From: Hyphomicrobiales bacterium | GTDB lineage: Bacteria > Pseudomonadota > Alphaproteobacteria > Rhizobiales > Beijerinckiaceae | DNA: 64,000 bases | NCBI GenBank assembly: GCA_028290285.1 | Contig: JAQGKD010000110.1 | Location: forward strand, 1 to 64,000 | Direction: 5' to 3' | In this document: positions 164 to 43,918 of the stretch, piece by piece | How positions within the stretch are numbered: position 1 is the first letter of the stretch | Layout of the letters: every line of letters begins with the position of its first letter | Notes under the pieces: model-generated | The model's input: the letters and a program-made list of their open reading frames with translations, nothing else | What the model was told of the DNA's origin: nothing | Database searches by the model: none | Translations under genes and position numbers: made by a program

Positions 164-1111
164 TCAGGCGACGATGCGCACGCGATCGGCGACGGCGACG
201 GAAAGCTTGCAAAGCTGGGGAATGACGATGTCCGAAAAAATGTCGCGAGAGGCCTGCGCGACCATCTGGGCCGCGGCTCCCCCGCGCTCGGGCACCCAGG
301 CGAGGTTGATGCAACGCACCGGTGTCGCCGTGGGAAAGGGCGCGATGGTCACGTCATCCGCGCTGATCCCTGCGCAATACATGCAGAGCGGCGTCGTGGC
401 GGTCCAGCCCAGCCCGTTGCGCACCTGGTCAAAAACAGCAAAGGAGGAATCGAACTCGAGCGTGCCATGCGTCTCGATGCCGAAACGCTCGAACTGATGC
501 TCGACGATGCGACCCAGCCGGCGCTTGCGCCCGTAACGAACCATGTCGAGCTTTGCAGCCAGCTCCGCCATGTCGTTCCAGTCGCGCGGCGCCTCCACGC
601 CACGCGGAAGGCAGAGAACGACAGGCTCGGTGAGCAGCGGCATCAACTCCGCACCCTCGATACCCTCGGCCTGCTCCGAGGTGATGATCATGTCTATTTC
701 GCCGCGCATCATCTCCGGCACCATTGGATGCGTGGTGCCGCTCGTGATCGAGAGATTGCCAACCTTTCCCGTGAGGCGATTCACGAGATGCGGCAGCAGC
801 GCCGCTGCGACCGACTCGATGAGGCCAATCTTCAATTCCGGAATGTCATTGTCGCGATAGCGCTGGAGCCCGTTCTCCATTTCGGAGATATCGCCGAACA
901 GCTTGCGCGCACGCCGGCGCAGAAACTCTCCCGCTGATGTAGGGCGCGGGGGCCGCACCGACCGATCGACGAGCCGCAGACCGAGGTCACGCTCGAGCTT
1001 TGTCAGATGCTGCGAGATGGCTGCCTGGGTGACATCGAGGGAGCGCGCCGCCGTCGTCAATCCACCGGTTTCACAAACTGCGAGGAAGATTTCGAGCCCT
1101 CTTATGTCCAA
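164..1111 (-). CDS. LysR-family transcriptional regulator
   Basis: Predicted DNA-binding regulator of 315 residues. Residues 1-60 form the winged helix-turn-helix, with the typical TQAAISQHLTKLERDLG stretch; the rest has the length and character of a LysR effector-binding domain. I start it at a TTG (1109-1111) because GGAGGG lies 8 bases upstream and the first residues (LDIRGLEIFLAV) then match where LysR proteins normally begin. An in-frame ATG 48 bases upstream would add 16 atypical residues and has no such site. It is the last gene of a minus-strand unit after an ABC importer and two amidase-like genes, so it probably controls them. Its effector is unknown. Confidence 0.9.
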   Translation of the reverse strand: MDIRGLEIFLAVCETGGLTTAARSLDVTQAAISQHLTKLERDLGLRLVDRSVRPPRPTSAGEFLRRRARKLFGDISEMENGLQRYRDNDIPELKIGLIESVAAALLPHLVNRLTGKVGNLSITSGTTHPMVPEMMRGEIDMIITSEQAEGIEGAELMPLLTEPVVLCLPRGVEAPRDWNDMAELAAKLDMVRYGRKRRLGRIVEHQFERFGIETHGTLEFDSSFAVFDQVRNGLGWTATTPLCMYCAGISADDVTIAPFPTATPVRCINLAWVPERGGAAAQMVAQASRDIFSDIVIPQLCKLSVAVADRVRIVA

Positions 1112-1197
1112 CGAACAATCCCTCCGGGGCACGCAATGTGCCCAACGGAGAAAGTGCAAGCGCCGTGCCGCAGCTTATGAAAATGCCACAACAACCG

Positions 1198-1989
1198 TCA
1201 GCTGGAAGAGACGAGCTTGAGGTGTGCCCCCTCTGGCGCCGGTGCCTTCGGAAGCCCGGGAAAAAGGCCGTCGGAGAGCGTCGCGATATACTCGAGAATT
1301 TCAGCAGCCGGCAGAACGTCTGCATACTTCGCGTGCATATCGCACAGGTTTACGGCGTGACTGGCTTGCGAACGATCAAAGCAACCATCCTCCGCAATGG
1401 CCACGCGAAAGTTCAGGCTGAACGCGTCGATGACCGTCGCGCGCACGCAGCCCGACGTGGTCGTGCCCGTGACGATCACGCTGTCCGCGCCAAGCAGCTG
1501 AAGATAACTCGCCAGATTGCTTCCAAAGAAGCCGGACGGCTTCTGCTTGAAGATGACGAGATCCTGCGGGGCCGGCTCGATCTGCGCGACAATCTCGTTC
1601 GCGTCGAGCTCCTGCGCGGGCTTGGGTACGGATTCGCCCGTGCGAGTGTTCTTCCACGACCAGCTGCCCATGTCCCATCCGTCGGGCCGCGTCTGTCCGG
1701 TCGTGTAGATGACAGGCAGTTTCTTGCCCCGGAAGGCCTCTGCGAGCGATCCTATGACGGAGATCGCATCCCAGCTTTCCGCGCCGCAGGAATTGCTCCA
1801 GCGCTTGATGGAGTCGAGGATCGGCTCAGGCTTGTCGCCCGCGAACCCGTAGCTCACGTCGATGATAAGCAGCGCGGGCCTCTTGCCGAAGCCTGCCCGC
1901 GCGCCAAAGCCCGATGTGGCGAAGACCTGTTTGTCGCGCTCCGTGAGATACGCGTCCCAGATCCGGCCGGCTTTCATGTCTTCGCCCAT
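1198..1989 (-). CDS. Isochorismatase-fold cysteine amidohydrolase (copy 1)
   Basis: Predicted cytosolic amidase of 263 residues in the isochorismatase/N-carbamoylsarcosine amidohydrolase superfamily. The expected triad is visible: Asp44 in LLIIDVSYGF, Lys148 or Lys150 in FKQKPSGFFG, and Cys181 in TTTSGCVRAT. The motif around Cys181 and the later DRSQASHAVNLCDM stretch resemble N-carbamoylsarcosine or maleamate amidohydrolases more than true isochorismatases. The start at 1989 follows GAGGAGG and sits 10 bases after the stop of a close paralogue. An ABC importer and a LysR gene flank the pair, which suggests hydrolysis of an imported amide or carbamoyl compound. The exact substrate is not deducible. 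Confidence 0.9.
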   Translation of the reverse strand: MGEDMKAGRIWDAYLTERDKQVFATSGFGARAGFGKRPALLIIDVSYGFAGDKPEPILDSIKRWSNSCGAESWDAISVIGSLAEAFRGKKLPVIYTTGQTRPDGWDMGSWSWKNTRTGESVPKPAQELDANEIVAQIEPAPQDLVIFKQKPSGFFGSNLASYLQLLGADSVIVTGTTTSGCVRATVIDAFSLNFRVAIAEDGCFDRSQASHAVNLCDMHAKYADVLPAAEILEYIATLSDGLFPGLPKAPAPEGAHLKLVSSS

Positions 1990-1999
1990 CGTCGCCTCC

Positions 2000-2764
2000 T
2001 CAGTAGTTGACGGCCTTGGCCTCGACCGGTGTCGCGCCCTTCGGCAGATCGTACATCCCGGCTTCGAGTCCATGGAAGAAGGTCAGCACTTCCGCCGTTT
2101 TCACCACGTCGGCATATTTTGCGTTCATGTCGCAGAGATTGATCGCATGACTCGCCTGCGAACGATCGAAGCAACCCTCTTCCGCGAGAGCGACCCGGAA
2201 GTTCAGGCTGAACGCATCCAGCACCGTCGCTCGCACGCAGCCCGATGTCGTGGTGCCCGTGACGACCACGCTGTCGCAGCCGAGCAATTGCAGGTAGCTC
2301 GCCATGTTCGTTCCGAAGAAACCCGACGGCTTCTGCTTCAGGATAACGATGTCCTGCGGTCCAGGCGCGATCTCCGCGACGATCTGGTTACCGTCGATGT
2401 TGCTCACCGGCACCTTCGGCTTTTCGCCACCGCGACTGTTCTTCCAGCCCCAGGAGCCCGCATCCCAGTTGTCTTCGCGACGCACGCCCGTCGTGTAGAT
2501 AACGGGAATGCCCTTCACGTGCGCCTTGTCGACAAGCGACTTGATGGCGGCGACCGCCGGCCAGCTTTCCTCGCCGCAGGAATTGCGCCAGCGCTTGATG
2601 GATTCGAGAATGTGCTCGGACTTGTCGCCGCAGAACGCATAGTTCACATCGATGACGAGAAGCGCAGGCTTCTTGCCGAAGCCGCCGCGCGCGCCGTATC
2701 CCGATGCCTCGAACACGGCCTTGTCGCGTTCCGTCAGAAACTTGTCCCAGATCGCTTCAGTCAT
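2000..2764 (-). CDS. Isochorismatase-fold cysteine amidohydrolase (copy 2)
   Basis: Paralogue of the next gene downstream: 254 residues, alignable over nearly its whole length. The triad is Asp39 (LLVIDVNYAF), Lys143 or Lys145 (LKQKPSGFFG) and Cys176 (TTTSGCVRAT). Divergence is greatest near the start and in the last 30 residues, where copy 2 ends in a different tail. The tandem may be a recent duplication, a heteromeric enzyme, or two enzymes with different substrates; N-carbamoylsarcosine amidases are tetrameric, so mixed oligomers are conceivable. The gene lies 47 bases after the ABC binding-protein gene in the same transcription direction. Confidence 0.9.
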   Translation of the reverse strand: MTEAIWDKFLTERDKAVFEASGYGARGGFGKKPALLVIDVNYAFCGDKSEHILESIKRWRNSCGEESWPAVAAIKSLVDKAHVKGIPVIYTTGVRREDNWDAGSWGWKNSRGGEKPKVPVSNIDGNQIVAEIAPGPQDIVILKQKPSGFFGTNMASYLQLLGCDSVVVTGTTTSGCVRATVLDAFSLNFRVALAEEGCFDRSQASHAINLCDMNAKYADVVKTAEVLTFFHGLEAGMYDLPKGATPVEAKAVNY

Positions 2765-2811: not shown

Positions 2812-3816
2812 TCACTTCACCGCTTCGGCTTTGACTGCCTTCAGGAAGCGGTTGTCGATGATCTCATCATACTTCACGTCCTGCTTCAGGATACCCGCGT
2901 CGCGCACGACGGAGCTGCCGGTGTCCCACGACGCCTGCGAGATCGAGCCGTCCTTGCTCCAGAGCTGATCCTTGAAGGTGCGGTCGAGAGTCGCCTTCAG
3001 GTCTTCTTCCGACATCGTCGGGAATTCCTTCTTGGCGACCTTGGTCGCTTCGTCAGGATGCGCATAGGTGAACTTCAAGCCCTTCACGACGCCGTTGACG
3101 AACTTCTGCACCGAGTCTGGATCCTTCTCGATGGAGTCGAGACGGACATTCAGGGTCGAATAGGCATACGGGCCGAGATCGGCGGGAACGGACAGGAAGG
3201 GCTCGCCCCACAGGCCTTCCTTGATACCGCGCGAGATCAGCGGCTCGGAGACGTTGCCGATTTCGGCCGCGCCGGTCTTCACCGTCGCGATGACGGCTGC
3301 CGTGGAGGTCTCGATGAGCGTCACGTCGGTCTTCACGTCGAGATTGTACTTCTTCATGAGATAGCGCGTGATCGAATTGGGAGTTCCGCTGTACTGGCCG
3401 ACGCCGATTTTCTTTCCCTTGAAATAGTCCGCCATGCTCTCGCCGGGCTTCGGCTCCAGTCCCTTGCGGGCCACGAAATAGACGTTTCCGCGATCGACGA
3501 CGTTCACGACGGCACGCAGCTCCGCGCCCTTGAGCTTGGCGAAGGCGTTATGCTCGGGGCCGCCTATGAAGGCGAAGGCCTGGCCTGTCAGCACTGCATT
3601 GGTGTGGCCCGAGCCGCTGTCGATGGTGATGACCTTCACCTCGATGCCCTGCTCCGTGAAATAGCCGTTGGCGATTGCGACATACAGCGGCAGGTAGCCG
3701 ATGCCATGCGTCGGCTCGGCGACGAGAAGCGGCTTCTTTTCCTGGGCGAGAGCACCCGACGCCACGCCGGTGGCGAGGATCGTTGCAAGCGCGACACGAC
3801 GCGTGATGGCATACAT
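2812..3816 (-). CDS. ABC transporter substrate-binding protein, NMT1/SsuA-like
   Basis: Periplasmic binding protein of 334 residues. A signal peptide is evident (RRVALATILATGVASGALAQ), cleaved around residue 24. The mature part begins with EKKPLLVAEPTHGIGYLPLYVAIANGYF, the hallmark of the NMT1/THI5-like and SsuA/TauA/ThiY group that binds small nitrogen or sulfur organics. The start at 3816 follows GGAG at 7 bases; an earlier in-frame ATG would overlap the permease gene. Permease and ATPase genes lie directly upstream, so this is a complete importer. The ligand is unknown, but the two downstream amidase-like genes favour a nitrogen-containing compound. Confidence 0.92.
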   Translation of the reverse strand: MYAITRRVALATILATGVASGALAQEKKPLLVAEPTHGIGYLPLYVAIANGYFTEQGIEVKVITIDSGSGHTNAVLTGQAFAFIGGPEHNAFAKLKGAELRAVVNVVDRGNVYFVARKGLEPKPGESMADYFKGKKIGVGQYSGTPNSITRYLMKKYNLDVKTDVTLIETSTAAVIATVKTGAAEIGNVSEPLISRGIKEGLWGEPFLSVPADLGPYAYSTLNVRLDSIEKDPDSVQKFVNGVVKGLKFTYAHPDEATKVAKKEFPTMSEEDLKATLDRTFKDQLWSKDGSISQASWDTGSSVVRDAGILKQDVKYDEIIDNRFLKAVKAEAVK

Positions 3817-3854
3817 GAATGTCTCCGTTACAGCGGTTTTCCGGAAGCCGAAAA

Positions 3855-4730
3855 TCAATGGACGATGCCCTTGCGCAGGACTTTTTCGAGGTAGGCGACG
3901 GCCACGTACATGACCATCGACAAGGCGGAGAGAACGAACACCGCCACCCAGACGAGCGGGATTTCATAGGTCTGGCCGGCATAGATGATCGTACGGCCGA
4001 GGCCGTGCTGAGACGACACGAATTCGCCCACGATCGCACCGGTCAACGCGAGGCCGATGTTCACGCGCAGGATCGAGATGATCCATGGGGTGCAGGACGG
4101 GGCGACGAGCTTGGTGAAAACCTGCCACCGGCTCGCACCCAGCGAATAGAACAACCGCTCCTGGTCATGATCGACAGCCTTCACGCCCGCATAGGCGGTC
4201 AGCGTCGAGACGACGAGCGTGAGCGCCGTGGCGATTGCCACCTTGGACGAAAGGCCCATGCCGAAGACGAGAATGATCAGCGGCGCGAGGGCGAGCTTGG
4301 GCAGGGACTCCAGGCAGATGATGTAGGGCTGCATGATCCGCGCATAATTGCTCGACCACCAGAAGGACATGCCAAGCAGGGCCCCACCCGTCGTGCCGAT
4401 GAAGAAGCCGAGCAGCGTCGAGCGGAAGGTAAACGCGATATCGGTGAAGGCCTCGCCCTCCTGGAAGAAGATCACGCCCGTCGACCAGATGGCGCTCGGC
4501 TGCGACCAGAAGAAGGGGTCGATGAACTTGGTGCGAGCCGCCACCTCCCAGCCGCCGACGAACGCGACGAGAATGGAGATCTGCACGAGCGCAACGACCC
4601 AGCCTGGCCAGTCGCGCCGCACGGGCAGACGACGCACCGGGCGGGGCCGGGTCTCGGGCGAACTCGACAGGCGAGGCACCGCCGCCCAAAGCGAACGTGC
4701 AGACGGAAAGGAGGAGGTCTTGGTGGCCAT
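3855..4730 (-). CDS. ABC transporter permease, SsuC/TauC/ThiX-like
   Basis: Inner-membrane permease of about 291 residues with the BPD_transp_1 fold. It has a long cytoplasmic N-terminus, then a first membrane segment (WPGWVVALVQISILVAFVGGWEV) and several more helices. The ATPase-contacting EAA-like loop is near SLGASRWQVFTKLVAPSCTPWI. The start at 4730 (MATKTSSFPSA) follows AAAGG; an upstream ATG at 4745 is possible. It sits between its ATPase gene (32 bases upstream) and its binding protein gene (38 bases downstream). Confidence 0.92.
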   Translation of the reverse strand: MATKTSSFPSARSLWAAVPRLSSSPETRPRPVRRLPVRRDWPGWVVALVQISILVAFVGGWEVAARTKFIDPFFWSQPSAIWSTGVIFFQEGEAFTDIAFTFRSTLLGFFIGTTGGALLGMSFWWSSNYARIMQPYIICLESLPKLALAPLIILVFGMGLSSKVAIATALTLVVSTLTAYAGVKAVDHDQERLFYSLGASRWQVFTKLVAPSCTPWIISILRVNIGLALTGAIVGEFVSSQHGLGRTIIYAGQTYEIPLVWVAVFVLSALSMVMYVAVAYLEKVLRKGIVH

Positions 4731-4762
4731 GAGGCGACCTTTCATTCTGGAATCGCGAGGAG

Positions 4763-5557
4763 TCAGGCAGCAATATCGCCGTGGGTATCGGGCGACGCGA
4801 GATGCAGGAGATCGAGGCAATATTTCTTCATGGCTACGAAGCGCGGCGAGGACACCACCGAGCGGTCGCGCGGGCGCGGCAAGTCAATCGGCAGCTTCTC
4901 GATCACGCGGCCGGGACGGCTCGCCATGACGTAGATCTCGTCCGACAGGAAGATCGCTTCCTCGACATCATGCGTGACGAACACGACCGTGCGTCCGAAA
5001 TCGTTGAACAACTGAAGCAGCCATTCCTGCATCCGGGCCTTGGTCTGCGCATCGAGCGCACCGAAAGGCTCGTCGAGCAGCACGACATCCTGGTCGACCA
5101 GCAATGTGCGCAACAGGGCTGCGCGCTGCCGCATGCCGCCGGACAGTGAACCGGGATAGCGATGCTCGAAACCGCCGAGGCCGTAACGGGCTAGCAGTGG
5201 CAACGCCCGCGCGCGCGCCTCGCTCATCTTGAAGCCGCGGATTTCCATGCCCAGCGCTACATTGTCTAGCACTGTGCGCCACGGCAGCAGCAGATCCTTC
5301 TGGAGCATATAACCAACACGCCCGATCAGGCCCGTCGCATCCTCGCCGTCGATCAGCACGCGGCCTGTCGTGGGCGGCTGAAGCCCCGCCACGATGTTGA
5401 AAATCGTGCTCTTTCCGCAGCCTGAGGGGCCGATCAGAGAGATGAATTTGCCAGCGGGTATTTCGAGATCGACGGGAGCCAGAGCCGTGAACGGCTTGCC
5501 GTCGGCCTCGAAGGTCATCGAGACATTTTCGAGTACGAGCTTGGAAGTGCCCGACAT
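4763..5557 (-). CDS. ABC transporter ATP-binding protein, SsuB/TauB-like
   Basis: ATPase subunit of about 264 residues. The Walker A motif is GPSGCGKST (about residues 43-51), the signature is LSGGMRQRAALLR, Walker B is VVLLDEPFGALDA, and the H-loop is FVTHDVEEA. The signature LSGGMRQR is usual in SsuB/TauB/NrtD-type ATPases. Translation likely starts at the ATG at 5557, 7 bases after GGAGG, rather than at an upstream codon that would add MAVWRLWRRR. It is the first gene of the importer, amidase and LysR unit, and a sigma-54-like promoter element lies about 55-70 bases upstream. Confidence 0.93.
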   Translation of the reverse strand: MSGTSKLVLENVSMTFEADGKPFTALAPVDLEIPAGKFISLIGPSGCGKSTIFNIVAGLQPPTTGRVLIDGEDATGLIGRVGYMLQKDLLLPWRTVLDNVALGMEIRGFKMSEARARALPLLARYGLGGFEHRYPGSLSGGMRQRAALLRTLLVDQDVVLLDEPFGALDAQTKARMQEWLLQLFNDFGRTVVFVTHDVEEAIFLSDEIYVMASRPGRVIEKLPIDLPRPRDRSVVSSPRFVAMKKYCLDLLHLASPDTHGDIAA

Positions 5558-5871
5558 CCTTCGCCTCCATAAGCGCCAGACCGCCACCGCGCGGCCTCTC
5601 CCTTACGCAAGCATACCCCGTGCCAAGCGGATTACTCTTTTCAAAACAGAGGACTAGTCAAACCGGACACGTACGCTGGGCTCCACGGCGTCCTGCGAGC
5701 CTCGCCGCCGCCATGCAATCGATGCTTCCCGCGCCTCCGGCATAGCGCGCTTGCCGCAGCGCGACGCTGCCAGAACATGCAACGTTTTCAGGGGCCATGC
5801 GGGCGTCTTCACCGCAACTGATGCGACATTGCCCAAAAATACGCCACGCATGCCCAATCCTGAGACATGCC
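5558..5871. other. Non-coding gap between the ABC importer unit and the MFS gene
   Basis: About 314 bases without a convincing gene; the open frames here have no recognisable content. The part nearest 5557 holds a minus-strand sigma-54-like element. At 5859-5876 there is a short inverted repeat (CCTGAG/CTCAGG) overlapping the stop of the MFS gene. It lacks a U-tract, so it is at best a weak terminator. Confidence 0.6.
5610..5626 (-). promoter_or_regulatory. Candidate sigma-54 (RpoN) -24/-12 promoter
   Basis: On the minus strand this reads TTGGCACGGGGTATGCT. It matches the RpoN consensus YTGGCACG-N4-TTGCW at all but one core position (A for the first T of TTGC), with correct GG/GC spacing. 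The predicted start site is near 5600, giving a leader of about 42 bases before the ATPase gene. Sigma-54 control would fit a nitrogen-scavenging operon, but no enhancer-binding activator gene is visible nearby. Confidence 0.55.
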
Positions 5872-7146
5872 TCAGGTAAGAGCGTTCCTGTCGCGCAATT
5901 TCGGGAACAGGCGGGCACACAGGCCTGCGACACCGATCGTTCCCACCCCGCCGAGCACAACCGCCATGACCGGGCCGACCAAAGACGCGACGAGGCCAGA
6001 CTCGAACTGGCCGAGTTCGTTGGATGCGCCGATGAACACCGTATTCACGGCAGCGACGCGCCCGCGCATCTCGTCGGGGGTTTCAACCTGGATAAGCGTC
6101 GAACGGATGAAAACGCTGATCATGTCGGATGCGCCAAGGATCAGGAGAAAGGGCAGCGCCACCCAGAAACTCGTCGAAAGTCCGAAGCCAATCGTCGCCA
6201 CGCCGAACAGTGCCACCGTCTGGAACATGCGAAGCCCGGCCTTGCTGCGAAGCGGCATGTGCGCGAGCAGCAGCGACGTGGTGAACGCGCCGAGCGCCGG
6301 TGCGCTGCGCAGAAGGCCTAGGCCCCACGGACCAACCATGAAGATATCGCGCGCATAGATCGGCAGCAGGGCCGTGGCCCCGCCCAGCAGGACGGCGAAG
6401 AGATCGAGCGTGATGGCGCCCAGAATGATGGGTTGCGAGAAGATGAAACGTACGCCGGCTGTCATATAGGGGAAGCTGAACTTCTCGGGCCGCGCCTTCA
6501 CGCCCCGCTTGTTCATGATGAGATAGGCGACGAGGCTGAGCCCGAAACAGAAGGTCGTCGCGCCGAAGACCACCGAGGGACCGAACGCATAAAGAAGGCC
6601 GCCGAGCGCCGGACCAGCGATGGTTGCCGTCTGGTAGGCCGACGAGGCGAGAGCCACTGCATTGCCCAGATGCTCCGGCGGAACGAGGCTCGGGATCATC
6701 GCCTGGCTCGCAGGTCCCGAGAAGGCGCGTGACGTGCCGAACACCGCGATCAGCATAAAGAGCACGGGAACGCTGATCTGCGTCTGCAGGGATGCGATCA
6801 GAAGGCCGAGCGCGGCGGTGGTCGAGACGAGATTGCAGACGACCAGCACATACTTTCGATCGAACATATCGGCCACCTGCCCGGCCAGCAGGGCGAAGAG
6901 AACGTTCGGCACGAAGATGCAGAGGCCGACGAGCCCGAGCGCAAAGGCGCTGTCGGTCAGGGCATAGACCAGCCAGCCGATGCCGACATCCACCATCTGG
7001 ACGGCCAGCGCATTGAAGACACGCGCAATGTAAAAGGCTGTGAAATCACGATAGCGAAACGCGATGAACCCGGCATGTGTGGCCACAAGCAGCGCACTTT
7101 CTGATGAGGTGGACGACACGCCACGGTGACGCGGAGTGCGCGACAC
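5872..7146 (-). CDS. MFS transporter, EntS-like (MFS_3 type)
   Basis: Integral membrane protein of up to 424 residues with about 12 hydrophobic helices. The N-terminal RYRDFTAFYIARVFNALAVQM, the loop DMFDRKYVLVVCNL and FALGLVGLCIFVPNVLFALL are typical of the enterobactin-exporter-like MFS_3 group, usually proton-driven exporters. The start is uncertain: the first in-frame start codon is a GTG at 7146 whose purine-rich sequence is too close, and later GTG codons are possible. It follows a LysR gene by 45 bases on the same strand and may export a metabolite or toxic intermediate of the adjacent catabolic genes. Confidence 0.85.
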   Translation of the reverse strand: MSRTPRHRGVSSTSSESALLVATHAGFIAFRYRDFTAFYIARVFNALAVQMVDVGIGWLVYALTDSAFALGLVGLCIFVPNVLFALLAGQVADMFDRKYVLVVCNLVSTTAALGLLIASLQTQISVPVLFMLIAVFGTSRAFSGPASQAMIPSLVPPEHLGNAVALASSAYQTATIAGPALGGLLYAFGPSVVFGATTFCFGLSLVAYLIMNKRGVKARPEKFSFPYMTAGVRFIFSQPIILGAITLDLFAVLLGGATALLPIYARDIFMVGPWGLGLLRSAPALGAFTTSLLLAHMPLRSKAGLRMFQTVALFGVATIGFGLSTSFWVALPFLLILGASDMISVFIRSTLIQVETPDEMRGRVAAVNTVFIGASNELGQFESGLVASLVGPVMAVVLGGVGTIGVAGLCARLFPKLRDRNALT

Positions 7147-7191: not shown

Positions 7192-8115
7192 CTACTTCAG
7201 TGGCCTGCCGAATTGTCCAAGCGCTTCGAGAATTTTCGTCTCGAGCTTTTCCATGAAGCGCAGCATATCCGAGTCATGCGCGTGCGCGTGTCGTCCCGCC
7301 GGCAAGACGGCATAGAGCGTGCGGGTAATCGCGGGACGATCGATGCGGCGGCCGACCAGCGTGCCCCGCTTCAACTCTTCCGCCGCAAGGCTGTAGGGCA
7401 TGATGCCAGCGCCGACGCCGCGCGCGATCAGCGATTTCATGGAATTCATGGAATGCACCTCAAAGGCCAGCCTGACTTTCAGGGATAGCCTCTGCGCCTC
7501 TGCGTCAACGATGGAACGAAGCAGTCCGCGCTCTCCCCCGATCACGAGTTCCGAGTCCAGTGCCTCCGCGAAACTCACCGTGGGTTCCGCGCCTGCCTTT
7601 TCCGGAGCGGTGACGAAGACGAAATCCTCTTCCAGGGTAGCCTTCCGCTCGAAGCCGGGCCGCGGCCCTATATTATAGGCGAGAATGACGTCGAGCTGCT
7701 CGCGCTCGAGTGCTTCGGCAAGGACAACGCTGCGCTCTTCCGAAAGGCTCAGGAAAATGCCCGGCATTTCCTTGCGCGCCTCGATCAGGACGTCGGGACC
7801 GATCAACAGCATGATGCTGGGCGACAGGCCGAGCACGATGGAATCCTTGCGCACATGACCGAGCGTCTGCACCTCGCGGCGCATCTCCTCCACGTCCCGC
7901 AGGATCGCCTTCGTGCGTTCGCAAAGCAGCCGCCCGGCTTCGGTCGGCGAAACGCCCCGTGAATGGCGCACCAGCAGGGCGACCGACAGTTCCTTTTCGA
8001 GCTGGCGGATCTGCGAGCCGAGCGCCGGCTGCGCGAGGTTGAGCTGCTCGGCGGCCGCGGTCATGTTCCCGGCTTCGACGACACGCATGAAATAGGTGAG
8101 CTGCTTCAGGTTGAT
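7192..8115 (-). CDS. LysR-family transcriptional regulator with probable ATC start
   Basis: Regulator of 307 residues if translation begins at ATC 8113-8115. The protein then starts (M)NLKQLTYFMRVVEAGNMTAAAEQLNLAQPALGSQIRQLE, exactly the usual LysR N-terminus. AGGAGG lies 6 bases before that ATC. No ATG, GTG or TTG gives a normal N-terminus: the nearest upstream in-frame alternative is a TTG about 90 bases away without a ribosome-binding site, and the first internal ATG would cut into helix 1. The effector domain is intact to the end. It lies between the amidohydrolase terminator and the MFS gene. Confidence 0.85.
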   Translation of the reverse strand: MNLKQLTYFMRVVEAGNMTAAAEQLNLAQPALGSQIRQLEKELSVALLVRHSRGVSPTEAGRLLCERTKAILRDVEEMRREVQTLGHVRKDSIVLGLSPSIMLLIGPDVLIEARKEMPGIFLSLSEERSVVLAEALEREQLDVILAYNIGPRPGFERKATLEEDFVFVTAPEKAGAEPTVSFAEALDSELVIGGERGLLRSIVDAEAQRLSLKVRLAFEVHSMNSMKSLIARGVGAGIMPYSLAAEELKRGTLVGRRIDRPAITRTLYAVLPAGRHAHAHDSDMLRFMEKLETKILEALGQFGRPLK

Positions 8116-8223
8116 GTCTGGCCTCCTCGCGCGGCGCGGACCCGTTCCGCCGCGAAGGGAGATCCTACACGAGCCTAAGCGCAGGCGGGAGACTGCCGTC
8201 GGCTCCAAACGGGAGCGAAACAG

Positions 8224-8250
8224 AAAAAAGGCGGCTCGAAAGCCGCCTTT
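8224..8250 (-). terminator. Rho-independent terminator after the amidohydrolase gene
   Basis: On the minus strand, AAAGGCGGCT and its complement flank a 4-base loop, and the stem is followed by a run of T (TTTTTTCTGTTT). The perfect stem plus U-tract, placed between the amidohydrolase stop (8316) and the LysR gene, makes this the clearest terminator in the window. Confidence 0.85.
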
Positions 8251-8315
8251 CAGGTAAGAACCGTTGACCGGTTTCTTCATGGTCCGGGCTTGGCGCCGGT
8301 ACACCGTCCCCAGGG

Positions 8316-9554
8316 TTAGCCTGCGGTGTAATTTCCGTATTTGATGAGGTTCTGCTTCTGCGTCTCGTTGCGCGGCTCCAGCTTGAACAGGCGCGCAGCG
8401 GTTCCGCCGACGATGTTGTGCTTGGCCTTTTCCGACAGGAACGGCAGGTCCCAGATCGTGCTCGGCAGGTCGAAGTCCCAGTGCGGGTAGTCGGAGGCAT
8501 AGAGCAGCTGCGTTTCCGCGTTGATCATGCGGAACGTGCATTCCAGCGCGTCCATGTCCTGTATTTCCATCGGCTGCGACGAGTAGAACATGTCGCGCAT
8601 GTAGTCCGACGGGCGCTTCTTCAGCAGTGGCGCTTCCGACGGGCGCATCATGTATTCGTGGTCGAGGCGCTGCATCAGGAACGGGATCCAGGCGAGGCCC
8701 GCCTCGATCCAGATCACCGGCAGCTTGGGGAAGCGCTCGCCCATGCCGTTGATGACCCAGTTGGTGCAATGCAGGATGTTGTAGAAGCTGAAGCCCAGAG
8801 CATGCACCGACAGGAAGCGGTTGCACCCTTTGAACACCGGCTCGCCCCAGTTCGGACCTGAGTGGAAGGCGAGGCTGAGGCCCCGCTCTTCAATGGCCCG
8901 GTAGACCTTCATCAGCGAGTTGTCGTGCACCGGCAAGGTGCGAACCGTCGTCACCATGAAGCCCGTGACGCCCTTGCAATGACCGAACTTCTCGACCTGA
9001 CGCAGGCACGCATCAGGATCCGACAGCGGCAGCGCGAGCTGCGAATAGAAGCGGCCGTGATGCTCGGGCAGCACGACTTCAGTGAGCCAGCGATTGTAGG
9101 CCCAGCACAGCTCGACTTCCATTTCCTTTTGCGGATGCAGGCCGACGTTGAGCATGCCGGTGGGAAACAGGCAGGAATAATCCACGCCCATCGCATCCAT
9201 CCAGCGCTCCCCGAGCTGCGCATCGCGCAACTTTCCGGGCTCGGTCTTTTCTGAATTGCGCAGCGGATAACGCGTCACGCGTCCGCCCATGTCCTGGTAG
9301 CCGACCTGGCCGGGCACGATGCTGTGACGGCCCTTGGCACGGCCCGACATGGTCAGCTGGCGCAGGACGTCGTTTTCCATGAACGGCAGGATCTCGCCGA
9401 AATTCTCATTTTCGTAATGATGCGCGTCGCAATCGACGATCATCACGTCTTCATACTTGCGGTCGCGCGCCTGTTCGGCGGCATGGGCGAGCAGCTTGGT
9501 GGTGTTGAGTTCTTCAACGGTGACGCGGCGTCCGCGGTCGGCAATAAGGTCCAT
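8316..9554 (-). CDS. TIM-barrel metal-dependent amidohydrolase (amidohydrolase_2 family)
   Basis: Predicted metal-dependent hydrolase or decarboxylase of 412 residues. The N-terminal strand carries IVDCDAHHYENENFGE, a variant of the metal-binding HxH region; FHSGPNWGEP supplies a later His; and YASDYPHWDFD near residue 370 is the conserved C-terminal Asp motif. These belong to the ACMSD/LigW/gamma-resorcylate decarboxylase-like superfamily, which hydrolyses or non-oxidatively decarboxylates aromatic or ring-derived acids. It follows the Rieske gene and a 104-residue gene in a tight unit (39 bases from the latter) and ends at a strong terminator. The substrate is unknown. Confidence 0.88.
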   Translation of the reverse strand: MDLIADRGRRVTVEELNTTKLLAHAAEQARDRKYEDVMIVDCDAHHYENENFGEILPFMENDVLRQLTMSGRAKGRHSIVPGQVGYQDMGGRVTRYPLRNSEKTEPGKLRDAQLGERWMDAMGVDYSCLFPTGMLNVGLHPQKEMEVELCWAYNRWLTEVVLPEHHGRFYSQLALPLSDPDACLRQVEKFGHCKGVTGFMVTTVRTLPVHDNSLMKVYRAIEERGLSLAFHSGPNWGEPVFKGCNRFLSVHALGFSFYNILHCTNWVINGMGERFPKLPVIWIEAGLAWIPFLMQRLDHEYMMRPSEAPLLKKRPSDYMRDMFYSSQPMEIQDMDALECTFRMINAETQLLYASDYPHWDFDLPSTIWDLPFLSEKAKHNIVGGTAARLFKLEPRNETQKQNLIKYGNYTAG

Positions 9555-9593: not shown

Positions 9594-9908
9594 TCAGCGA
9601 CCCGTCCAGCTCTGCCACATGCCGAGTTCGAACACCTGCAGATCCGCCGCCTTCAGCATGGCGCCGCACAGGACGAGCACGTCTGTCCCAGAAACCGAGC
9701 CGGGACCGGCGAGCACCGGATAGCCGTTGCCGGCTTCCATATTCGCGCCATAGCTCTTTGCGAGCGCCGACAGCATGGCCTGCAAGGCCTGCGGCGACAG
9801 CGCGTCGAGCTTGCCGGCCATCGTGGCCGCCTCGATCTCGCGGGCGAGCGCGACGACGCGATTGGACAGCCCGAGATCGACGGCGGGTGCGGTCTCAGGC
9901 GACGACAT
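9594..9908 (-). CDS. Small protein of unknown function in the Rieske-amidohydrolase cassette
   Basis: A 104-residue acidic to neutral soluble protein that I do not recognise. The first two thirds look helical (LSNRVVALAREIEAATMAGKLDALSPQALQAMLSALAKSY); the C-terminal part (SGTDVLVLCGAMLKAADLQVFELGMWQSW) has one Cys and Trp residues. Its ATG lies 14 bases inside the end of the Rieske gene, so the two are translationally coupled. The placement suggests an accessory subunit for the Rieske protein or the amidohydrolase. No cofactor motif is visible. Confidence 0.75.
   Translation of the reverse strand: MSSPETAPAVDLGLSNRVVALAREIEAATMAGKLDALSPQALQAMLSALAKSYGANMEAGNGYPVLAGPGSVSGTDVLVLCGAMLKAADLQVFELGMWQSWTGR

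Positions 9909-11562: not shown

Positions 11563-11576
<14 letters not shown>
10452..11576 (-). CDS. RidA-like/alpha-beta hydrolase (arylformamidase-like) fusion protein
   Basis: A 374-residue two-part protein. Residues 1 to about 105 resemble the RidA/YjgF fold: an AREGATPGDIAGLTL helix-strand unit, EIDGAWREV, and a final LTLRAEAHVRQ strand like the RidA C-terminus. From about residue 125 comes an alpha/beta hydrolase with the oxyanion HGGYWQ motif typical of kynurenine formamidases, the nucleophile elbow GHSAGA, and a late HHFDLL that probably supplies the catalytic His. The ATG at 11576 overlaps the LivF gene by 14 bases, so it is co-translated with the Liv importer. RidA proteins clear reactive enamines and arylformamidases cleave N-formyl amides, so an imported amide or amino compound is a reasonable substrate. 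Confidence 0.82.
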
Positions 11577-12263
<687 letters not shown>

Positions 12264-12264
<1 letters not shown>

Positions 12265-14900: not shown

Positions 14901-14947
14901 ACACACCTCTGGAGACATTCAGACCAGCGCATGAGGCGCGGTCTATC

Positions 14948-14970: not shown

Positions 14971-15000
14971 CCAGGCTTGAACGTCAGGGCCGCCTCGAAT

Positions 15001-39187: not shown

Positions 39188-39901
39188 ATGGTCCAGCGCG
39201 TCGGACTCATCATTCCATCCTCGAACCGCATGGTTGAGGAGGAGATGGTACATTTCTATCCCAAGGGAGTGGTGGCGCATGTGACGCGCCTGCGCATGAC
39301 CGGTCCGCACAAGAAGCCACTCGCAGACCTTCTCGGCGAAATACAGACCGCAGCTGCCGCTCTGGTCGATGCCAAATGCGACGTCGTGACCTTTCATTGT
39401 ACTGTTACCTCCATGTCGGATGGCCCCGAGGGCGAGGCGCGGATTCTGGATGCGCTGAAAGCCGCTGGCGCGCCGTGCGTCGCGACCACATCGACCGCCG
39501 TGCGCGCAGCGCTCGATGCCTGCGGCGCCCAGCGCATCGCACTCGTCACGCCCTACGATTCGCACAAGACGGACGAGGAAATCGAATTCCTGTCACACGC
39601 GGGCTATCAGGTCGTCGCCGCCAAGGGCTACGATCTCAAGAACAGCGATGCCTATTGCGCGACGCCTTCCAGCGTCTGGCGCGAGCGCGTTCTCGAGGCC
39701 GCGCGGCCCGATGTGGATGCCTATTTCCTCAGCTGCGCCAACATTCAAGGCATCGGCGAGATCGCCGGACTGGAAGCGAAACTCGGCAAGCCCGTCCTGA
39801 CCAGCAATCAGGTTGTCGTCTGGGACGCGTTGCGTCAGCTCGGACACCCCGCTCGCAACGACATGCCCGGCTCGTTATTCGGCAGGCAGAACGCCGCCTG
39901 A
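39188..39901 (+). CDS. Asp/Glu racemase superfamily protein (maleate isomerase/AMDase-like)
   Basis: A 237-residue cytosolic enzyme. RVGLIIPSSNRMVEEEM is the opening of the maleate cis-trans isomerase/arylmalonate decarboxylase group. Two catalytic-type Cys are visible: Cys71 in VTFHCTVTSM and Cys183 in FLSCANIQGIG, both at the expected positions for the two-Cys mechanism. LTSNQVVVWDALRQLG is the conserved C-terminal segment. AAAGGGAGG precedes the ATG. Its last 27 bases overlap the end of iclR on the other strand. Isomerisation of maleate-like or ring-opened diacids is plausible. Confidence 0.88.
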   Translation: MVQRVGLIIPSSNRMVEEEMVHFYPKGVVAHVTRLRMTGPHKKPLADLLGEIQTAAAALVDAKCDVVTFHCTVTSMSDGPEGEARILDALKAAGAPCVATTSTAVRAALDACGAQRIALVTPYDSHKTDEEIEFLSHAGYQVVAAKGYDLKNSDAYCATPSSVWRERVLEAARPDVDAYFLSCANIQGIGEIAGLEAKLGKPVLTSNQVVVWDALRQLGHPARNDMPGSLFGRQNAA

Positions 39902-40690: not shown

Positions 40691-40724
40691 CAAGAAAGAA
40701 CAAGGCGAGCCGAGGGAGGCGACC

Positions 40725-41852
40725 ATGACCGACCGCAACGCGACGATGCAGAACCGCACCGCGATGTATAACGACAACGCCCTGAAAATTGGCCTCTTCG
40801 GAGCCAATTGCTCGTCGGGCCGCGCCGTCACCACCGTGCCCGAGCGCTGGTCCGGCAGTTGGAAGGATTGCCTCGCCCTTGCCAAGGCGGCCGATGAGGC
40901 CGGCATCGACTTCATGCTGCCGATCGGTCGCTGGAAGGGCTATGGCGGCGACACCGACTATCAGGGGGCGACGCTCGAAACCCTGACCTGGGCCAGCGGC
41001 CTTCTCGCGGCCACCAATCGCATCTGCGTCTTCGGCACGGTTCACGCGCCGCTCTTTCACCCGCTGATCGCCTCCAAGGAATTCGTGACGGCCGATCATA
41101 TCGGCGAAGGCCGTTTCGGGCTCAATGTCGTCTGCGGCTGGAATGAGGGCGAGTTCGAAATGTTCGGCGTCGAGCAGCGCAATCACGAGCGCCGCTACGA
41201 TTACGCGCAGGAATGGATCGACATCGTCAAGCGCGCCTGGTCGCCGGAAAACGATTTCAACTACAAGGGCGAATTCTTCGACCTGAAGGGTGTGCGCACC
41301 AAGCCCAAGCCCTATGGCGACACGCGCCCGATGATCATGAATGCGGGCTCCTCCGCCGCGGGGCGCTCCTTCGCGCTGCGCAATTGCGATGGCTTCTTCA
41401 CCACGGCGTCCCGCGTTTCGCTGGAAGAGACCGCCGAGAAGGTGCAGGGCATCAAGGCGCAGGCTGCGGAATATGGCCGTGGGATCGACGTGTTCACCGT
41501 GGGTGTCGTCACCCTGCGCAAGACCATGAAGGAAGCGCAGGATTACTACCGTTATTCCGTCATCGACGGCGCCGACTGGAACGCCGTGCGCGACATTCTC
41601 GCGCTGAAGAACATTTTGCCCGAGACGGTCGGACAGGAAGAATACGACACCAAGCGCAAGCAATATGCCAATGGCATGGGGGGCTTGCCGATCGTCGGCG
41701 ACCCCGACACGGTCGCCGAAATGTTCGCGGGCCTCAGCCGCGCGGGGCTTCGCGGCATCGGCATTTCCATGGTCAATTACGCCGACGAGCTGCCCCTCTT
41801 CGTCGAGGAAGTTCTGCCCCGGCTCAAGAAGATGGGCGTGCGCGCGATCTGA
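40725..41852 (+). CDS. Luciferase-like flavin-dependent monooxygenase (RutA-like)
   Basis: A 375-residue TIM-barrel flavin monooxygenase of the bacterial luciferase-like superfamily. RFGLNVVCGWNEGEFEMFG is the conserved flavin-site segment seen in RutA, alkanesulfonate and dibenzothiophene-sulfone monooxygenases; the N-terminal ANCSSGRAVTTVPERW fits the RutA/DszA branch. The start at 40725 follows GAGGGAGG. It needs FMNH2 from a separate reductase, and none is adjacent. The IclR gene and operator next to it suggest substrate-induced expression. Ring-opening or C-N/C-S cleavage is possible; the substrate is unknown. Confidence 0.92.
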   Translation: MTDRNATMQNRTAMYNDNALKIGLFGANCSSGRAVTTVPERWSGSWKDCLALAKAADEAGIDFMLPIGRWKGYGGDTDYQGATLETLTWASGLLAATNRICVFGTVHAPLFHPLIASKEFVTADHIGEGRFGLNVVCGWNEGEFEMFGVEQRNHERRYDYAQEWIDIVKRAWSPENDFNYKGEFFDLKGVRTKPKPYGDTRPMIMNAGSSAAGRSFALRNCDGFFTTASRVSLEETAEKVQGIKAQAAEYGRGIDVFTVGVVTLRKTMKEAQDYYRYSVIDGADWNAVRDILALKNILPETVGQEEYDTKRKQYANGMGGLPIVGDPDTVAEMFAGLSRAGLRGIGISMVNYADELPLFVEEVLPRLKKMGVRAI

Positions 41853-42890
41853 TCACGGACCGCTCGTCCCCAGTGCCGTCTGGGTCCGGGCAATCACATC
41901 GGCAGGTGTCGAAAGCACCTGCCGGATCGCCGTTTCTACCTCTTCGCCAGTCATCGGGTCGATATCCACCTGCATCCTCGCGGCCTCCGCAAGAAAAGCG
42001 GGGTCTCGCATGGTGGCGTCGAACGCGCGGCGCAGCACTGCAACGCGCTCGGCAGGAACACGCGGCGGGGCTGCGAGCGGCCGGCTGATCGCGGTGGTCA
42101 GCGACAGAAAGCGCGCCACGGGCTCACGCTGCGCGTCGCCTGCCACCAGGTCAGTGAGCAGCGGCACATCGGGCAGATCGGGATCCTTCTTCAAGCCGAT
42201 CTGCACGAGCGGCACGAGCTTCCGCTCCCGCACTGCATCGGCAAAAGTCGACTTGTAGCTCGGCCACGTATTTGTGCCGCGCCCGTCCAGTTCGCCGCGC
42301 TCCATGGCGAGGTTGATCTGCGCGCCGCCCGTATAGCCGGTCACGACCTTGAAGCGCGTGCCGAGCAAAGCGTTGTAAACGCGCGGCATCTGCGCATCTG
42401 GAGCCCCTGCCCCGGTCGAACCCATCGTCGCCTCGACCCGCTTTGCATCGTCCACCGTCTTCACCGGAGATGTGTGCCAGACAGCGGTGACATTGGGCGA
42501 CTGGCTGGAATTGCCGATCCAGTTCATGTCGCCGAGCGAGGCCTGTAATCCGGCCTGCCCCGTAGGCTCGAAGATCAGCAGCCCCTGCCCGACCAGCGTC
42601 AGGAACGTACCGTCCTGCGGCGCGATGCGCGCGGCATAATTGAAGGCTGTCAGGCCACCCGCACCGGGCTGGTTCGTCACGATGATCGAGGGCGAGCCGG
42701 GAATATGTTTGCCGAGATGTCGCGAGATCAGGCGGATCAGCGTGTCATAGCCTCCACCCGGCCCCGTATGCGTCGAGAGCGTGATGGTGCGGCCCGCATA
42801 GAAATCCTGCGCGAGCACCGGAGTCGCACCCGAAAGGTACAAGCCGAGAGACAGCGCGTGAAAGGCGCGGATCCCCATTCCCCGGCTCAT
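41853..42890 (-). CDS. TctC/Bug-family receptor (4)
   Basis: A 345-residue exported receptor. The leader (FHALSLGLYLSGATPVLAQ) is followed by DFYAGRTITLSTHTGPGGGYDTLIRLISRHLGKHIPG. MERGELDGRGTNTW is the family's central motif, and DIDPMTGEEVETAI its C-terminal one. Its stop abuts the monooxygenase stop at TGATCA. Its ATG overlaps the stop of the NMT1-type receptor gene by 4 bases, so two receptors of different transporter classes are co-translated. Confidence 0.92.
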   Translation of the reverse strand: MSRGMGIRAFHALSLGLYLSGATPVLAQDFYAGRTITLSTHTGPGGGYDTLIRLISRHLGKHIPGSPSIIVTNQPGAGGLTAFNYAARIAPQDGTFLTLVGQGLLIFEPTGQAGLQASLGDMNWIGNSSQSPNVTAVWHTSPVKTVDDAKRVEATMGSTGAGAPDAQMPRVYNALLGTRFKVVTGYTGGAQINLAMERGELDGRGTNTWPSYKSTFADAVRERKLVPLVQIGLKKDPDLPDVPLLTDLVAGDAQREPVARFLSLTTAISRPLAAPPRVPAERVAVLRRAFDATMRDPAFLAEAARMQVDIDPMTGEEVETAIRQVLSTPADVIARTQTALGTSGP

Positions 42891-43918
42891 CGCACGTCCC
42901 TATAGGGTCCGAGTTCTTTCAACACCGCGTCGAGGAAGCTCAGGTCGACGGCCTGCTCGACCTCCACCTGGCCCTGAATGAGGCCGGCATCGCGGAAGAC
43001 CTGCAGGTCTTCCTTCATGCTGGGCAGATCGAGTTTGCCGTCGGGGTTGATGGCGCTGAGGATGAAGGACCGATGCACCGCCGGATCCTTCACGAGACTG
43101 TATTCGGTGAGGATCGCGACCACCTCGTCGCCCTTGGGGCCGGCGAACTTTCCGTCCACCAGCGCGTCGTTGTGGTCGCGCACACCACGCAGATAGGCTT
43201 TCAGGAACCGCCGGGCGAGCGCCGGGTCGCGCTTGGCGAAGATGCCGGAAAACAGCACGGCGGAGATCTGGTGATTGGGATAGATCTCGTCGTCGCTGAC
43301 GATGCGAACCGCGCCATCCTCCATTGCCTGCGTCGCCTGCGGCTCGGCCGGCAGCGCCGCATCGACGGCCTTGTTACGGAGCGCCAGTACCATCTGCGAG
43401 AAGGACATGTTCACCTCCTCGATGTCGGTGCGCTTCAGGCCGCCCTTTTCAAGGATCTTCACCATCGTGCCCATGGCCGCCGTACCGGGCGCGGAGGTTG
43501 CGATGCGCATGCCTTTGAGGTCCGCTAAACCTTTGAAACGGCCGCTATCCACAAGATCTTTACGTAACAGGAGCTTCTGGCTGGAGCGCCCGGGCGGGGT
43601 AGAATTCTTGTCGGCGACAATGCGAATATCGATCCCGCGAGCAATTGCATTGTAGAGACCGGCCGACATTCCGCCCGCGCCTACACTCAATTCTCCGGTG
43701 CCGAAAAGGGAGTTCATCCGTGCGGCGGAGTCGAACTGGATGAACTTGGCTTGGATGCCCTCCTCCCGGAAATATCCTTTCTTATCAGCGATGAAGAAGC
43801 CGACATCAGTCGCCGAATTGGTCAGCCCGACACTGACCTCGACGAGTTCGGCGGCACGCGCTGCCCCCATGGAAATGGATAGGAGGCTCGCGAACGCGAG
43901 CACCAGCCGAGCAATCAT
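42887..43918 (-). CDS. Orphan ABC substrate-binding protein, NMT1/THI5-like
   Basis: A 343-residue exported receptor. The leader (LVLAFASLLSISMGAARAAE) precedes LVEVSVGLTNSATDVGFFIADKKGYFREEGIQAKF. The start at 43918 follows GGGAGG. No permease or ATPase gene is adjacent; the next gene is a tctC gene with which it overlaps. Its sequence differs clearly from the other two NMT1-type receptors of the window. Confidence 0.9.
   Translation of the reverse strand: MIARLVLAFASLLSISMGAARAAELVEVSVGLTNSATDVGFFIADKKGYFREEGIQAKFIQFDSAARMNSLFGTGELSVGAGGMSAGLYNAIARGIDIRIVADKNSTPPGRSSQKLLLRKDLVDSGRFKGLADLKGMRIATSAPGTAAMGTMVKILEKGGLKRTDIEEVNMSFSQMVLALRNKAVDAALPAEPQATQAMEDGAVRIVSDDEIYPNHQISAVLFSGIFAKRDPALARRFLKAYLRGVRDHNDALVDGKFAGPKGDEVVAILTEYSLVKDPAVHRSFILSAINPDGKLDLPSMKEDLQVFRDAGLIQGQVEVEQAVDLSFLDAVLKELGPYRDVR

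What the first reader, a model, noticed from the sequence alone, without database searches (positions are those of the whole stretch)
164..43918. Two catabolic blocks that together resemble an N-heterocycle or aromatic-amide degradation system
Directly seen: a molybdenum hydroxylase, RutA-like flavin monooxygenase, extradiol-like dioxygenase, FAH hydrolase, two tandem N-carbamoylsarcosine/maleamate-type amidases, an arylformamidase-like fusion, a metal amidohydrolase with a Rieske protein, and a maleate isomerase-like protein. Known pathways for nicotinate, pyrimidines and related rings use these same classes in order (ring hydroxylation, ring opening, deformylation or deamidation, maleamate to maleate to fumarate). 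Inference: the blocks encode one or more undescribed routes; no single known pathway accounts for the set. The two blocks are separated by 6 kb of unrelated genes.
Basis: partly seen in the sequence, partly recalled or inferred. Interest (0 to 1): 0.75.

Follow-up and report, generated by a model that had tools for sequence, protein, structure and literature searches.

The report
Amidohydrolase-type oxygenase operon with small partner
A gene that looks like an ordinary amide-splitting enzyme is very probably an oxygen-using enzyme that attacks C-H bonds; it usually travels with an iron-sulfur electron carrier and often with a small uncharacterised protein that may be an unrecognised third part of the machine.

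Summary
The "metal amidohydrolase" (8316-9554) is an amidohydrolase-related dinuclear oxygenase (ARO) candidate: its best solved relatives are the AROs 8SM7/8SM6/8SM9 and AibH2, and all six metal ligands are conserved. The Rieske protein beside it is its expected ferredoxin. Between them lies a 104-aa protein with no convincing Pfam or NCBIfam match and no Foldseek match. Searched alone in whole genomes, it appeared at 32 places: 32/32 have the Rieske gene and 31/32 the ARO gene in the held 1.5-kb flanks. Its start overlaps the Rieske stop by exactly 14 nt in 39 of 43 pairs. I propose it is an unrecognised coupling or assembly subunit. Block 1 (SBP8 to MFS) is a conserved cluster: syntenic, as far as contigs reach, in four related genomes, three of them without the extradiol gene. 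The tandem amidases form a separate conserved module with an ABC importer. Block 2 is not tied to the unit: three of the four genomes lack its Mo-hydroxylase and close LLM orthologues. Rut assignments fail; nicotinate stays open. The substrate is unknown, most likely a nitrogenous aromatic or amide.

The parts
8316..9554 (-). Amidohydrolase-related dinuclear oxygenase (ARO) candidate, 412 aa; ligands D43, H45, H231, E284, D355, H358; second-shell D360
   Evidence: Pfam PF04909; best PDB matches 8sm7 2e-37, 8sm6, 8sm9, 6m1w; ligand columns invariant in 83 of the 83 rows that span them (84 rows in all)
9594..9908 (-). 104-aa helical protein of unknown family; proposed third (coupling/assembly) component
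   Evidence: alignment A1; no convincing Pfam/NCBIfam match, best E 0.013 and 0.0028; AF2 four helices, pLDDT 83; no Foldseek match; 32 of 32 genomic places beside Rieske, 31 of 32 beside ARO
9895..10260 (-). Small Rieske [2Fe-2S] ferredoxin (C43-L-H45, C83-P-W-H86), proposed electron donor of the ARO; longest ORF reaches 10332
   Evidence: PF00355; motif; within 1.8 kb of the ARO in 62 of 80 loci, 2.1 kb in one more
10452..11576 (-). Fusion: N-terminal RidA-like fold (inferred) plus C-terminal kynurenine-formamidase-like alpha/beta hydrolase
   Evidence: directly beside LivF in 6 of the 6 homologues found in 24 other genomes
11563..16266 (-). Branched-chain-amino-acid/amide type ABC importer, LivF, LivG, LivM, LivH, LivK
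   Evidence: Pfam
16288..17283 (-). NMT1/SsuA-like solute-binding protein
   Evidence: Pfam
17308..18201 (-). Extradiol (vicinal-oxygen-chelate) dioxygenase; Fe ligands H138, H193, E244 by alignment to catechol 2,3-dioxygenase
18232..19104 (-). Fumarylacetoacetate-hydrolase-family (HpaG-like) protein
19133..20878 (-). Fused double ABC permease
   Evidence: PF00528, two stretches
20947..22011 (-). Solute-binding protein SBP_bac_8
7192..8280 (-). LysR regulator, kept beside the ARO in L071 (77%)
5872..7146 (-). MFS transporter, kept beside LysR in L071 (71%)
1198..2764 (-). Tandem isochorismatase-fold amidases Iso1 and Iso2 (N-carbamoylsarcosine/maleamate type), separate module
2812..5587 (-). 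ABC importer (NMT1-type binding protein, permease, ATPase) of the amidase module
   Evidence: kept in 8 of 12 fetched Iso2 loci
164..1156 (-). LysR regulator of the amidase module
   Evidence: kept in 4 of 12 fetched Iso2 loci
31290..34932 (+). Block 2: molybdenum hydroxylase CoxM/S/L-like (YRAPGR motif at 359)
39188..39901 (+). Block 2: maleate isomerase/EutA/arylmalonate decarboxylase-like protein, with Cys in FHCTVT and LSCANI
40725..41852 (+). Block 2: LLM flavin monooxygenase, SfnG/RutA-like

Best explanation
Block 1 is an aerobic catabolic cluster built round an amidohydrolase-related dinuclear oxygenase. Importers bring in a small, probably nitrogen-containing substrate. Electrons pass from an unlinked NADH-dependent reductase to the Rieske ferredoxin and on to the dinuclear (Mn/Fe or Fe2) site of the ARO, which activates O2 and hydroxylates a C-H bond. 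The 104-aa protein, probably translationally coupled to the ferredoxin, acts as a coupling, docking or assembly subunit of this oxygenase. In this strain the hydroxylated product is then probably ring-cleaved by the extradiol dioxygenase and trimmed by the FAH-family enzyme and the RidA/formamidase-like fusion; the adjacent amidase module removes amide nitrogen. Shown by sequence: ARO and Rieske family and motifs, the conserved triad, synteny of the cluster, the 14-nt overlap. Inferred: electron path, C-H hydroxylation, the role of the 104-aa protein. Speculative: substrate, order of later steps, and that the amidase module serves the same substrate. Block 2 is a set of separate catabolic genes.
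For: ARO: best PDB matches are the AROs 8sm7 (2e-37), 8sm6, 8sm9 and AibH2 6m1w, against 1.5e-14 for the best decarboxylase. The six ligands of AibH2 named in PMC7782822 align with D43, H45, H231, E284, D355, H358, invariant in 83 of 83 rows spanning them; the second-shell Asp (D342 in AibH2) is D360. Rieske within 1.8 kb in 62 of 80 loci, the 104-aa protein in 44, both in 44. 104-aa profile searched alone: 32 places in 21 genomes, 32 with Rieske, 31 with ARO; the exception has an ARO about 6 kb away on the same contig. The 11 ARO genomes of the 289-genome class sample are all positive, and the 6 other positives carry handles from outside that sample. 14-nt overlap in 39 of 43 pairs (window sequence). 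Synteny in L073, and as far as contigs reach in L071/L234, L233 and L232+L220.
Against: No activity, metal content or complex was measured. No ferredoxin reductase (AibF) and no AibH1-like partner was found in block 1. 18 of 80 ARO loci have no Rieske within 1.8 kb and 18 more have Rieske without the 104-aa protein, so it is not universal among AROs; on the tree its presence changes at least 13 times. The genome search scored at most 12 or 20 first-look candidates per genome, so weak copies away from AROs could be missed. The extradiol gene is absent from the cluster in G534, G535 and G536. The RidA-like N-domain rests on predicted topology and one Pfam hit at E 0.14. The 80 loci were recruited with patterns that include HHYENENF and DYPHWDFD, so ligand invariance there is partly selected for.
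Confidence: 0.7

Rival explanations
1. One reading: the two blocks together encode one N-heterocycle or aromatic-amide route (Mo hydroxylase, flavin ring opening, deformylation, deamidation, maleamate to maleate to fumarate).
For: All classes are present in one 44-kb stretch. In other genomes Mo-hydroxylase, extradiol and FAH genes lie near the ARO triad (L043, L058, L067). G537 holds orthologues from both blocks. MaleIso lies one or two genes from LLM in L214-L216, and an MFS relative (51-53%) lies near LLM in L211 and L213.
Against: G534, G535 and G536 hold the block-1 cluster without LLM above 47% or CoxL at E<=1e-180 (small assemblies). The 8 CoxL and 12 LLM contexts fetched lack close relatives of the block-1 enzymes. 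Rut cut-offs not met. No NicX-type gene was seen in the Pfam scans of the window's main ORFs (recalled family).
Confidence: 0.08
2. The 8316 protein is a mononuclear decarboxylase or hydrolase of the ACMSD/5-carboxyvanillate type, and the Rieske protein serves another enzyme.
For: Same Pfam family; weaker matches to 4icm, 2wm1, 2dvt.
Against: The best ARO match is more than 20 orders of magnitude better than the best decarboxylase; the ligands of both metals are conserved; the Rieske gene is near in 62 of 80 loci.
Confidence: 0.07
3. Block 1 is a pile of independent modules (ARO triad, Liv-RidA hydrolase, amidase module, SBP8/FAH) that share a neighbourhood but not a substrate.
For: Modules occur apart elsewhere: ARO triads without Liv, Liv-RidA_abh without ARO in L235, and no close ARO relative in any of the 12 Iso2 stretches fetched (L145 has two PF04909 relatives at 21-28%).
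Against: Order and strand are kept, as far as contigs reach, in four other genomes at 60-93% identity; the whole run from permease to ARO is seen in L073. Amidase and Liv-RidA modules are near each other again in L145.
Confidence: 0.3
4. The 104-aa protein is a regulator, antitoxin-like protein or metallochaperone rather than a subunit of the oxygenase.
For: Small, helical, no known family. A chaperone for a mixed-metal site would also be linked this tightly.
Against: No conserved Cys/His set for metal binding: the invariant and nearly invariant positions are T75, F93, E94, L95, G96, W98, Q99. Fixed overlap with the ferredoxin gene.
Confidence: 0.25

Closest known systems
AROs of Liu et al. 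2024 (SfbO 8SM6, 8SM7-8SM9; PMC10811679, parts 1 and 2 of 3 read, that is all of the main text and part of the references)
   Same: PF04909 oxygenase fold, six-ligand site, adjacent small Rieske ferredoxin
   Different: Here a conserved 104-aa protein lies between Rieske and ARO; none of six words searched for such a protein occurs in that main text (figures and supplement not seen, so their loci may have it too)
AibH1H2-AibG-AibF of Rhodococcus wratislaviensis (PMC7782822, outline and two result sections read)
   Same: AibH2-type metal ligands; Rieske ferredoxin; LysR regulator in the cluster
   Different: No AibH1 partner, no AibF reductase and none of the Aib-pathway dehydrogenases in block 1; extra 104-aa protein, which their Table 1 does not list
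Soluble methane monooxygenase and its coupling protein MmoB (recalled)
   Same: Works like: metal oxygenase, iron-sulfur electron donor, small extra protein
   Different: No match to any Pfam family at a convincing score, so no sign of kinship to MmoB; different oxygenase fold
Rut pyrimidine pathway (roles recalled; NCBIfam models)
   Same: LLM monooxygenase, isochorismatase-fold amidase, RidA-like plus alpha/beta hydrolase are all present
   Different: RutA and RutB models score far below cut-off; genes lie in separate modules; the hydrolase is formamidase-like
N-carbamoylsarcosine amidohydrolase (1nba, 26st) and 3ot4/3uao (which I recall as NicF; labelled putative isochorismatase)
   Same: Fold and the D, K, C motif positions of Iso1/Iso2 (triad recalled)
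   Different: Tandem pair with an ABC importer beside it; substrate unknown; Iso2 scores 85-88.5 bits to the former, 76.5 to the latter

Membership tests
ARO (amidohydrolase-related dinuclear oxygenase) | PF04909 domain | tested here: met
   E 1.7e-23
ARO (amidohydrolase-related dinuclear oxygenase) | Six metal-coordinating residues of AibH2 | tested here: met
   D43, H45, H231, E284, D355, H358 by alignment to 8sm6/8sm7/6m1w, positions, columns
ARO (amidohydrolase-related dinuclear oxygenase) | Adjacent small Rieske protein with CxH...CxxH | tested here: met
   9895-10260
ARO (amidohydrolase-related dinuclear oxygenase) | Dinuclear redox-active metal site and O2-dependent C-H oxidation | not testable with these tools
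   needs purified protein
Aib monooxygenase system | AibH1 partner subunit and AibF reductase in the cluster | tested here: not met
   one PF04909 gene and no reductase among the block-1 genes scanned
Rut pathway | RutA (TIGR03612) at cut-off | tested here: not met
   137 bits against 498.3
Rut pathway | RutB (TIGR03614) at cut-off | tested here: not met
   42.4 and 53.5 bits, 87.3 for the third isochorismatase, against 377.95
Nicotinate (Nic) lower pathway | Maleamate amidohydrolase NicF | tested here: inconclusive
   Iso2 matches 3ot4/3uao at 76.5 bits but N-carbamoylsarcosine amidohydrolases at 85-88.5
Nicotinate (Nic) lower pathway | Maleate isomerase | tested here: inconclusive
   39188-39901 matches 4fq7/2xed at 67-73 bits; NCBIfam best EutA 112 of 318
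Aerobic CO dehydrogenase | CoxL model at cut-off | tested here: not met
   641.9 of 950 and 407.4 of 991
Extradiol dioxygenase, catechol 2,3-type | 2-His-1-carboxylate ligands | tested here: met
   aligned to 1mpy, positions; which residues of 1mpy bind iron is recalled

The most novel reading that the evidence does not exclude
A large subfamily of AROs are three-protein monooxygenases whose third part, a 104-aa helical protein encoded in fixed 14-nt overlap with the Rieske gene, is an undescribed effector (an independent counterpart of MmoB-type coupling proteins) that controls O2 activation at a Mn/Fe or Fe2 site.
Probability: 0.4. Interest if true: 0.78.

Novelty: new variant of a known kind. 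Interest (0 to 1): 0.6.

Why it matters
AROs are a recently recognised class of C-H-hydroxylating metalloenzymes. For SfbO only a surrogate substrate with KM 83 mM was found (PMC10811679), and the first Aib study saw activity only in whole cells. A conserved, tightly linked third protein would be a direct, testable reason why some purified AROs work poorly, and a genomic handle for finding native systems. It also shows how 'amidohydrolase' annotations can hide oxygenases in catabolic clusters.

Tried and rejected
Rut pathway: class match, cut-offs failed. Nicotinate/maleamate route: no decisive member. Picolinate PicB as an ARO: recalled idea, no paper on it in the listing. A pyridine/Rieske/extradiol literature search gave nothing that fits (listing only). 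Riboflavin/lumichrome pathway (PMC12746152, passages seen): different enzyme set. CO dehydrogenase: cut-off not met. Known fold for the 104-aa protein: Foldseek gave 0 matches. RidA domain by Pfam: 6 of 7 N-domains without a RidA match, one at E 0.14. Louvain clusters on raw stop-to-stop ORFs were full of antisense shadows and were replaced by codon-based gene calls. That gene caller missed the 104-aa gene in some loci (among them L071, L073, L255, L256), so counts use profile searches of all open frames. Rows dropped: 3 of 41 candidate references (L048, L053, L076) were left out of alignment A1; L073 is truncated and was left out of the tree (83 of 84 rows) and of the ligand count (83 of 84). 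Mended on rechecking: Rieske of L075 lies 2.1 kb upstream, outside the 1.8-kb limit; the claim that the cluster is syntenic in four genomes now says how far the contigs reach.
Full report
The window is G000:C128:1-64000 of a 4.99-Mb assembly in 145 contigs. The closest ARO-bearing named records are Hyphomicrobiales/Beijerinckiaceae metagenome assemblies, so the host is probably of that order (inference).

Observation. Block 1 (164-22011) is one run of 22 minus-strand genes, most of them with short gaps or overlaps. The spacer (22145-29156) holds PRC, BrkB, Tex and GH13 genes. Block 2 (29262-43939) holds TctC and NMT1 binding proteins, an aldolase II, CoxM/S/L, a cupin, an SDR, an EutA/maleate-isomerase-like protein, IclR and an LLM monooxygenase.

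The key correction. The PF04909 protein at 8316-9554 has as best solved relatives 8sm7 (2e-37), 8sm6 (2e-31), 8sm9 (2e-26) and 6m1w/AibH2 (7.5e-25); decarboxylases come far behind (4icm, 1.5e-14). 8SM6-8SM9 are the amidohydrolase-related dinuclear oxygenases of Liu et al. 2024 (PMC10811679, parts 1-2 of 3 read), found by their adjacent Rieske genes. AibH2 is the Mn/Fe hydroxylase of Powell et al. 2023 (PMC10401708, passages and section 7). Ligands of AibH2 (D25, H27, H211, E265, D337, H340; PMC7782822, sections 7 and 8) correspond to D43, H45, H231, E284, D355, H358, invariant in 83 of the 83 rows that span them (84 rows in all). The Rieske protein next to it has CxH...CxxH. Powell et al. report 90% co-occurrence of a small Rieske gene with AibH2-like genes; here it was 62 of 80 loci within 1.8 kb, plus one at 2.1 kb.

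The third gene. Between Rieske and ARO lies a 104-aa gene (9594-9908). Relatives align over a conserved C-terminal half with a FELGMWQ stretch. None of 39 members has a convincing Pfam or NCBIfam match (best E 0.013 and 0.0028). The AlphaFold model has four helices (mean pLDDT 83.3) and no Foldseek match in the PDB. In 80 ARO loci it is near the ARO in 44, always with Rieske. Searched alone as a profile in whole genomes (249 of the order, 385 of the class, 398 of the phylum, overlapping samples, at most 12 or 20 first-look candidates scored per genome) it gave 32 distinct places in 21 genomes, two of the places in the window's own genome; the phylum search added none. Rieske is beside 32 of 32; the ARO is within the held 1.5 kb at 31 of 32, and in the exception (G011) an ARO lies about 6 kb away on the same contig. 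The 11 ARO genomes of the 289-genome class sample are all positive, whose 6 other positives have handles from outside that sample; I did not check that all 289 were drawn again. The start codon overlaps the Rieske stop by exactly 14 nt in 39 of 43 pairs (3 of 46 frames have no Rieske just upstream), among them the Rubrobacter locus L086. In the window the overlap reads YVVA-stop in one frame and MSSPE in the other. Of 31 plasmid records with an ARO relative I looked at three, all with the 104-aa frame between Rieske and ARO; in the two that have annotation, Phaeobacter and Neorhizobium, it is called hypothetical protein and also overlaps by 14 nt. On the ARO tree (quick method) the gene is scattered, with at least 13 changes: 18 ARO loci lack a near Rieske and 104-aa gene, and 18 have Rieske only.

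Neighbourhood. The order permease-FAH-NMT1_B-Liv-RidA_abh-Rieske-104-aa-ARO is seen whole in L073 (G535). L071/L234 (G534) shows it from FAH to the ARO and on to LysR and MFS; L233 (G536) shows it from the permease to the 104-aa gene, where the contig ends; G537 shows it in two contigs whose ends fit, NMT1_B to Rieske (L232) and SBP8 to the extradiol gene (L220). The extradiol gene is in this place only in G537 and the window. Extradiol relatives also lie near the triad in 5 of 37 close loci (L043, L053, L058, L059, L067) and FAH relatives in 7 of 37; I have no background rate for these. The 6 homologues of the RidA-like/formamidase-like fusion found in 24 other genomes all sit beside LivF. 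The amidase pair belongs to a module ABC ATPase-permease-NMT1-Iso2-(Iso1)-(LysR): importer with Iso2 in 8 of 12 fetched loci, Iso1 in tandem and LysR in 4 each. Iso2 at E<=1e-90 occurs in 13 of 22 other ARO genomes and in 2 of 149 other genomes of the order (Fisher p 4e-12, not corrected for kinship). In L145 this module lies one gene away from RidA_abh-Liv.

Two-block test. Of the four other genomes with the block-1 cluster in whole or part, three (3.0, 1.9 and 2.8 Mb) have LLM homologues of at most 47% identity and no CoxL at E<=1e-180; G537 has LLM 86% and CoxL 81%. Those three also lack Iso2 at E<=1e-40. LLM recurs within two genes of MaleIso in 3 of 12 fetched contexts (L214-L216), near an MFS relative in two (L211, L213), and beside TctC4 and NMT1_C in G537. 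The 8 CoxL contexts show no close block-1 relative.

Mechanism. Best supported: import, ARO hydroxylation with electrons through the Rieske protein, then cleavage and hydrolysis. The substrate is open. Weak similarities of binding proteins to urea, sulfonate and aminoethylphosphonate types are all far below cut-off and not used. Extradiol, FAH, RidA-like and formamidase-like steps would fit an aminated or hydroxylated aromatic (inference from family knowledge).

Novelty. ARO plus Rieske is known. Literature searches (listings) and word searches in the two ARO papers showed no mention of the third gene; figures and supplements were not seen, and subscription papers are mostly absent from the library, so this is not proof that it is undescribed.

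Noticed in passing
L093:8745-13743: Four ARO-like genes in tandem (uncultured Rhodospirillales), with a Rieske/104-aa pair before them and a second, reversed-order pair about 6 kb after them; tandem AROs also in G210:C2 and G104:C22.
   Followed up: no
L036, L037, L050, L055, L061, L063, L065, L068, L069, L070: Close ARO relatives (70-89%) with neither Rieske nor 104-aa gene nearby, several beside TctC binding proteins or a protein that I take for UbiD-like (recalled).
   Followed up: partly
G000:C43:13305-14543 and G000:C127:71481-72638: The window's genome has two further ARO genes (73% and 56%); the first also has the 104-aa and Rieske genes.
   Followed up: partly
L257:6983-8211: In the Neorhizobium galegae plasmid the ARO is annotated as two neighbouring ORFs after intact-looking Rieske and 104-aa genes.
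   Followed up: no
61904-63982: P-type ATPase domain fused to a C-terminal hemerythrin domain.
   Followed up: no
53882-54598: Third isochorismatase-fold hydrolase beside a cation efflux gene; an 82% relative lies near CoxMSL in G537.
   Followed up: partly
37065-38183: 372-aa cupin protein with a weak match to gentisate dioxygenase (3bu7); cupin relatives lie in the ARO loci L037-L039.
   Followed up: no
29262-43939: Four TctC-type and one NMT1-type solute-binding proteins in block 2; no membrane transport gene was found among the block-2 ORFs scanned.
   Followed up: no
L223, L224, L227: These extradiol contexts share an NMT1_B-type binding protein, an alpha/beta hydrolase and an FMN reductase (families named from the L223 copies), suggesting another conserved aromatic module.
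   Followed up: partly
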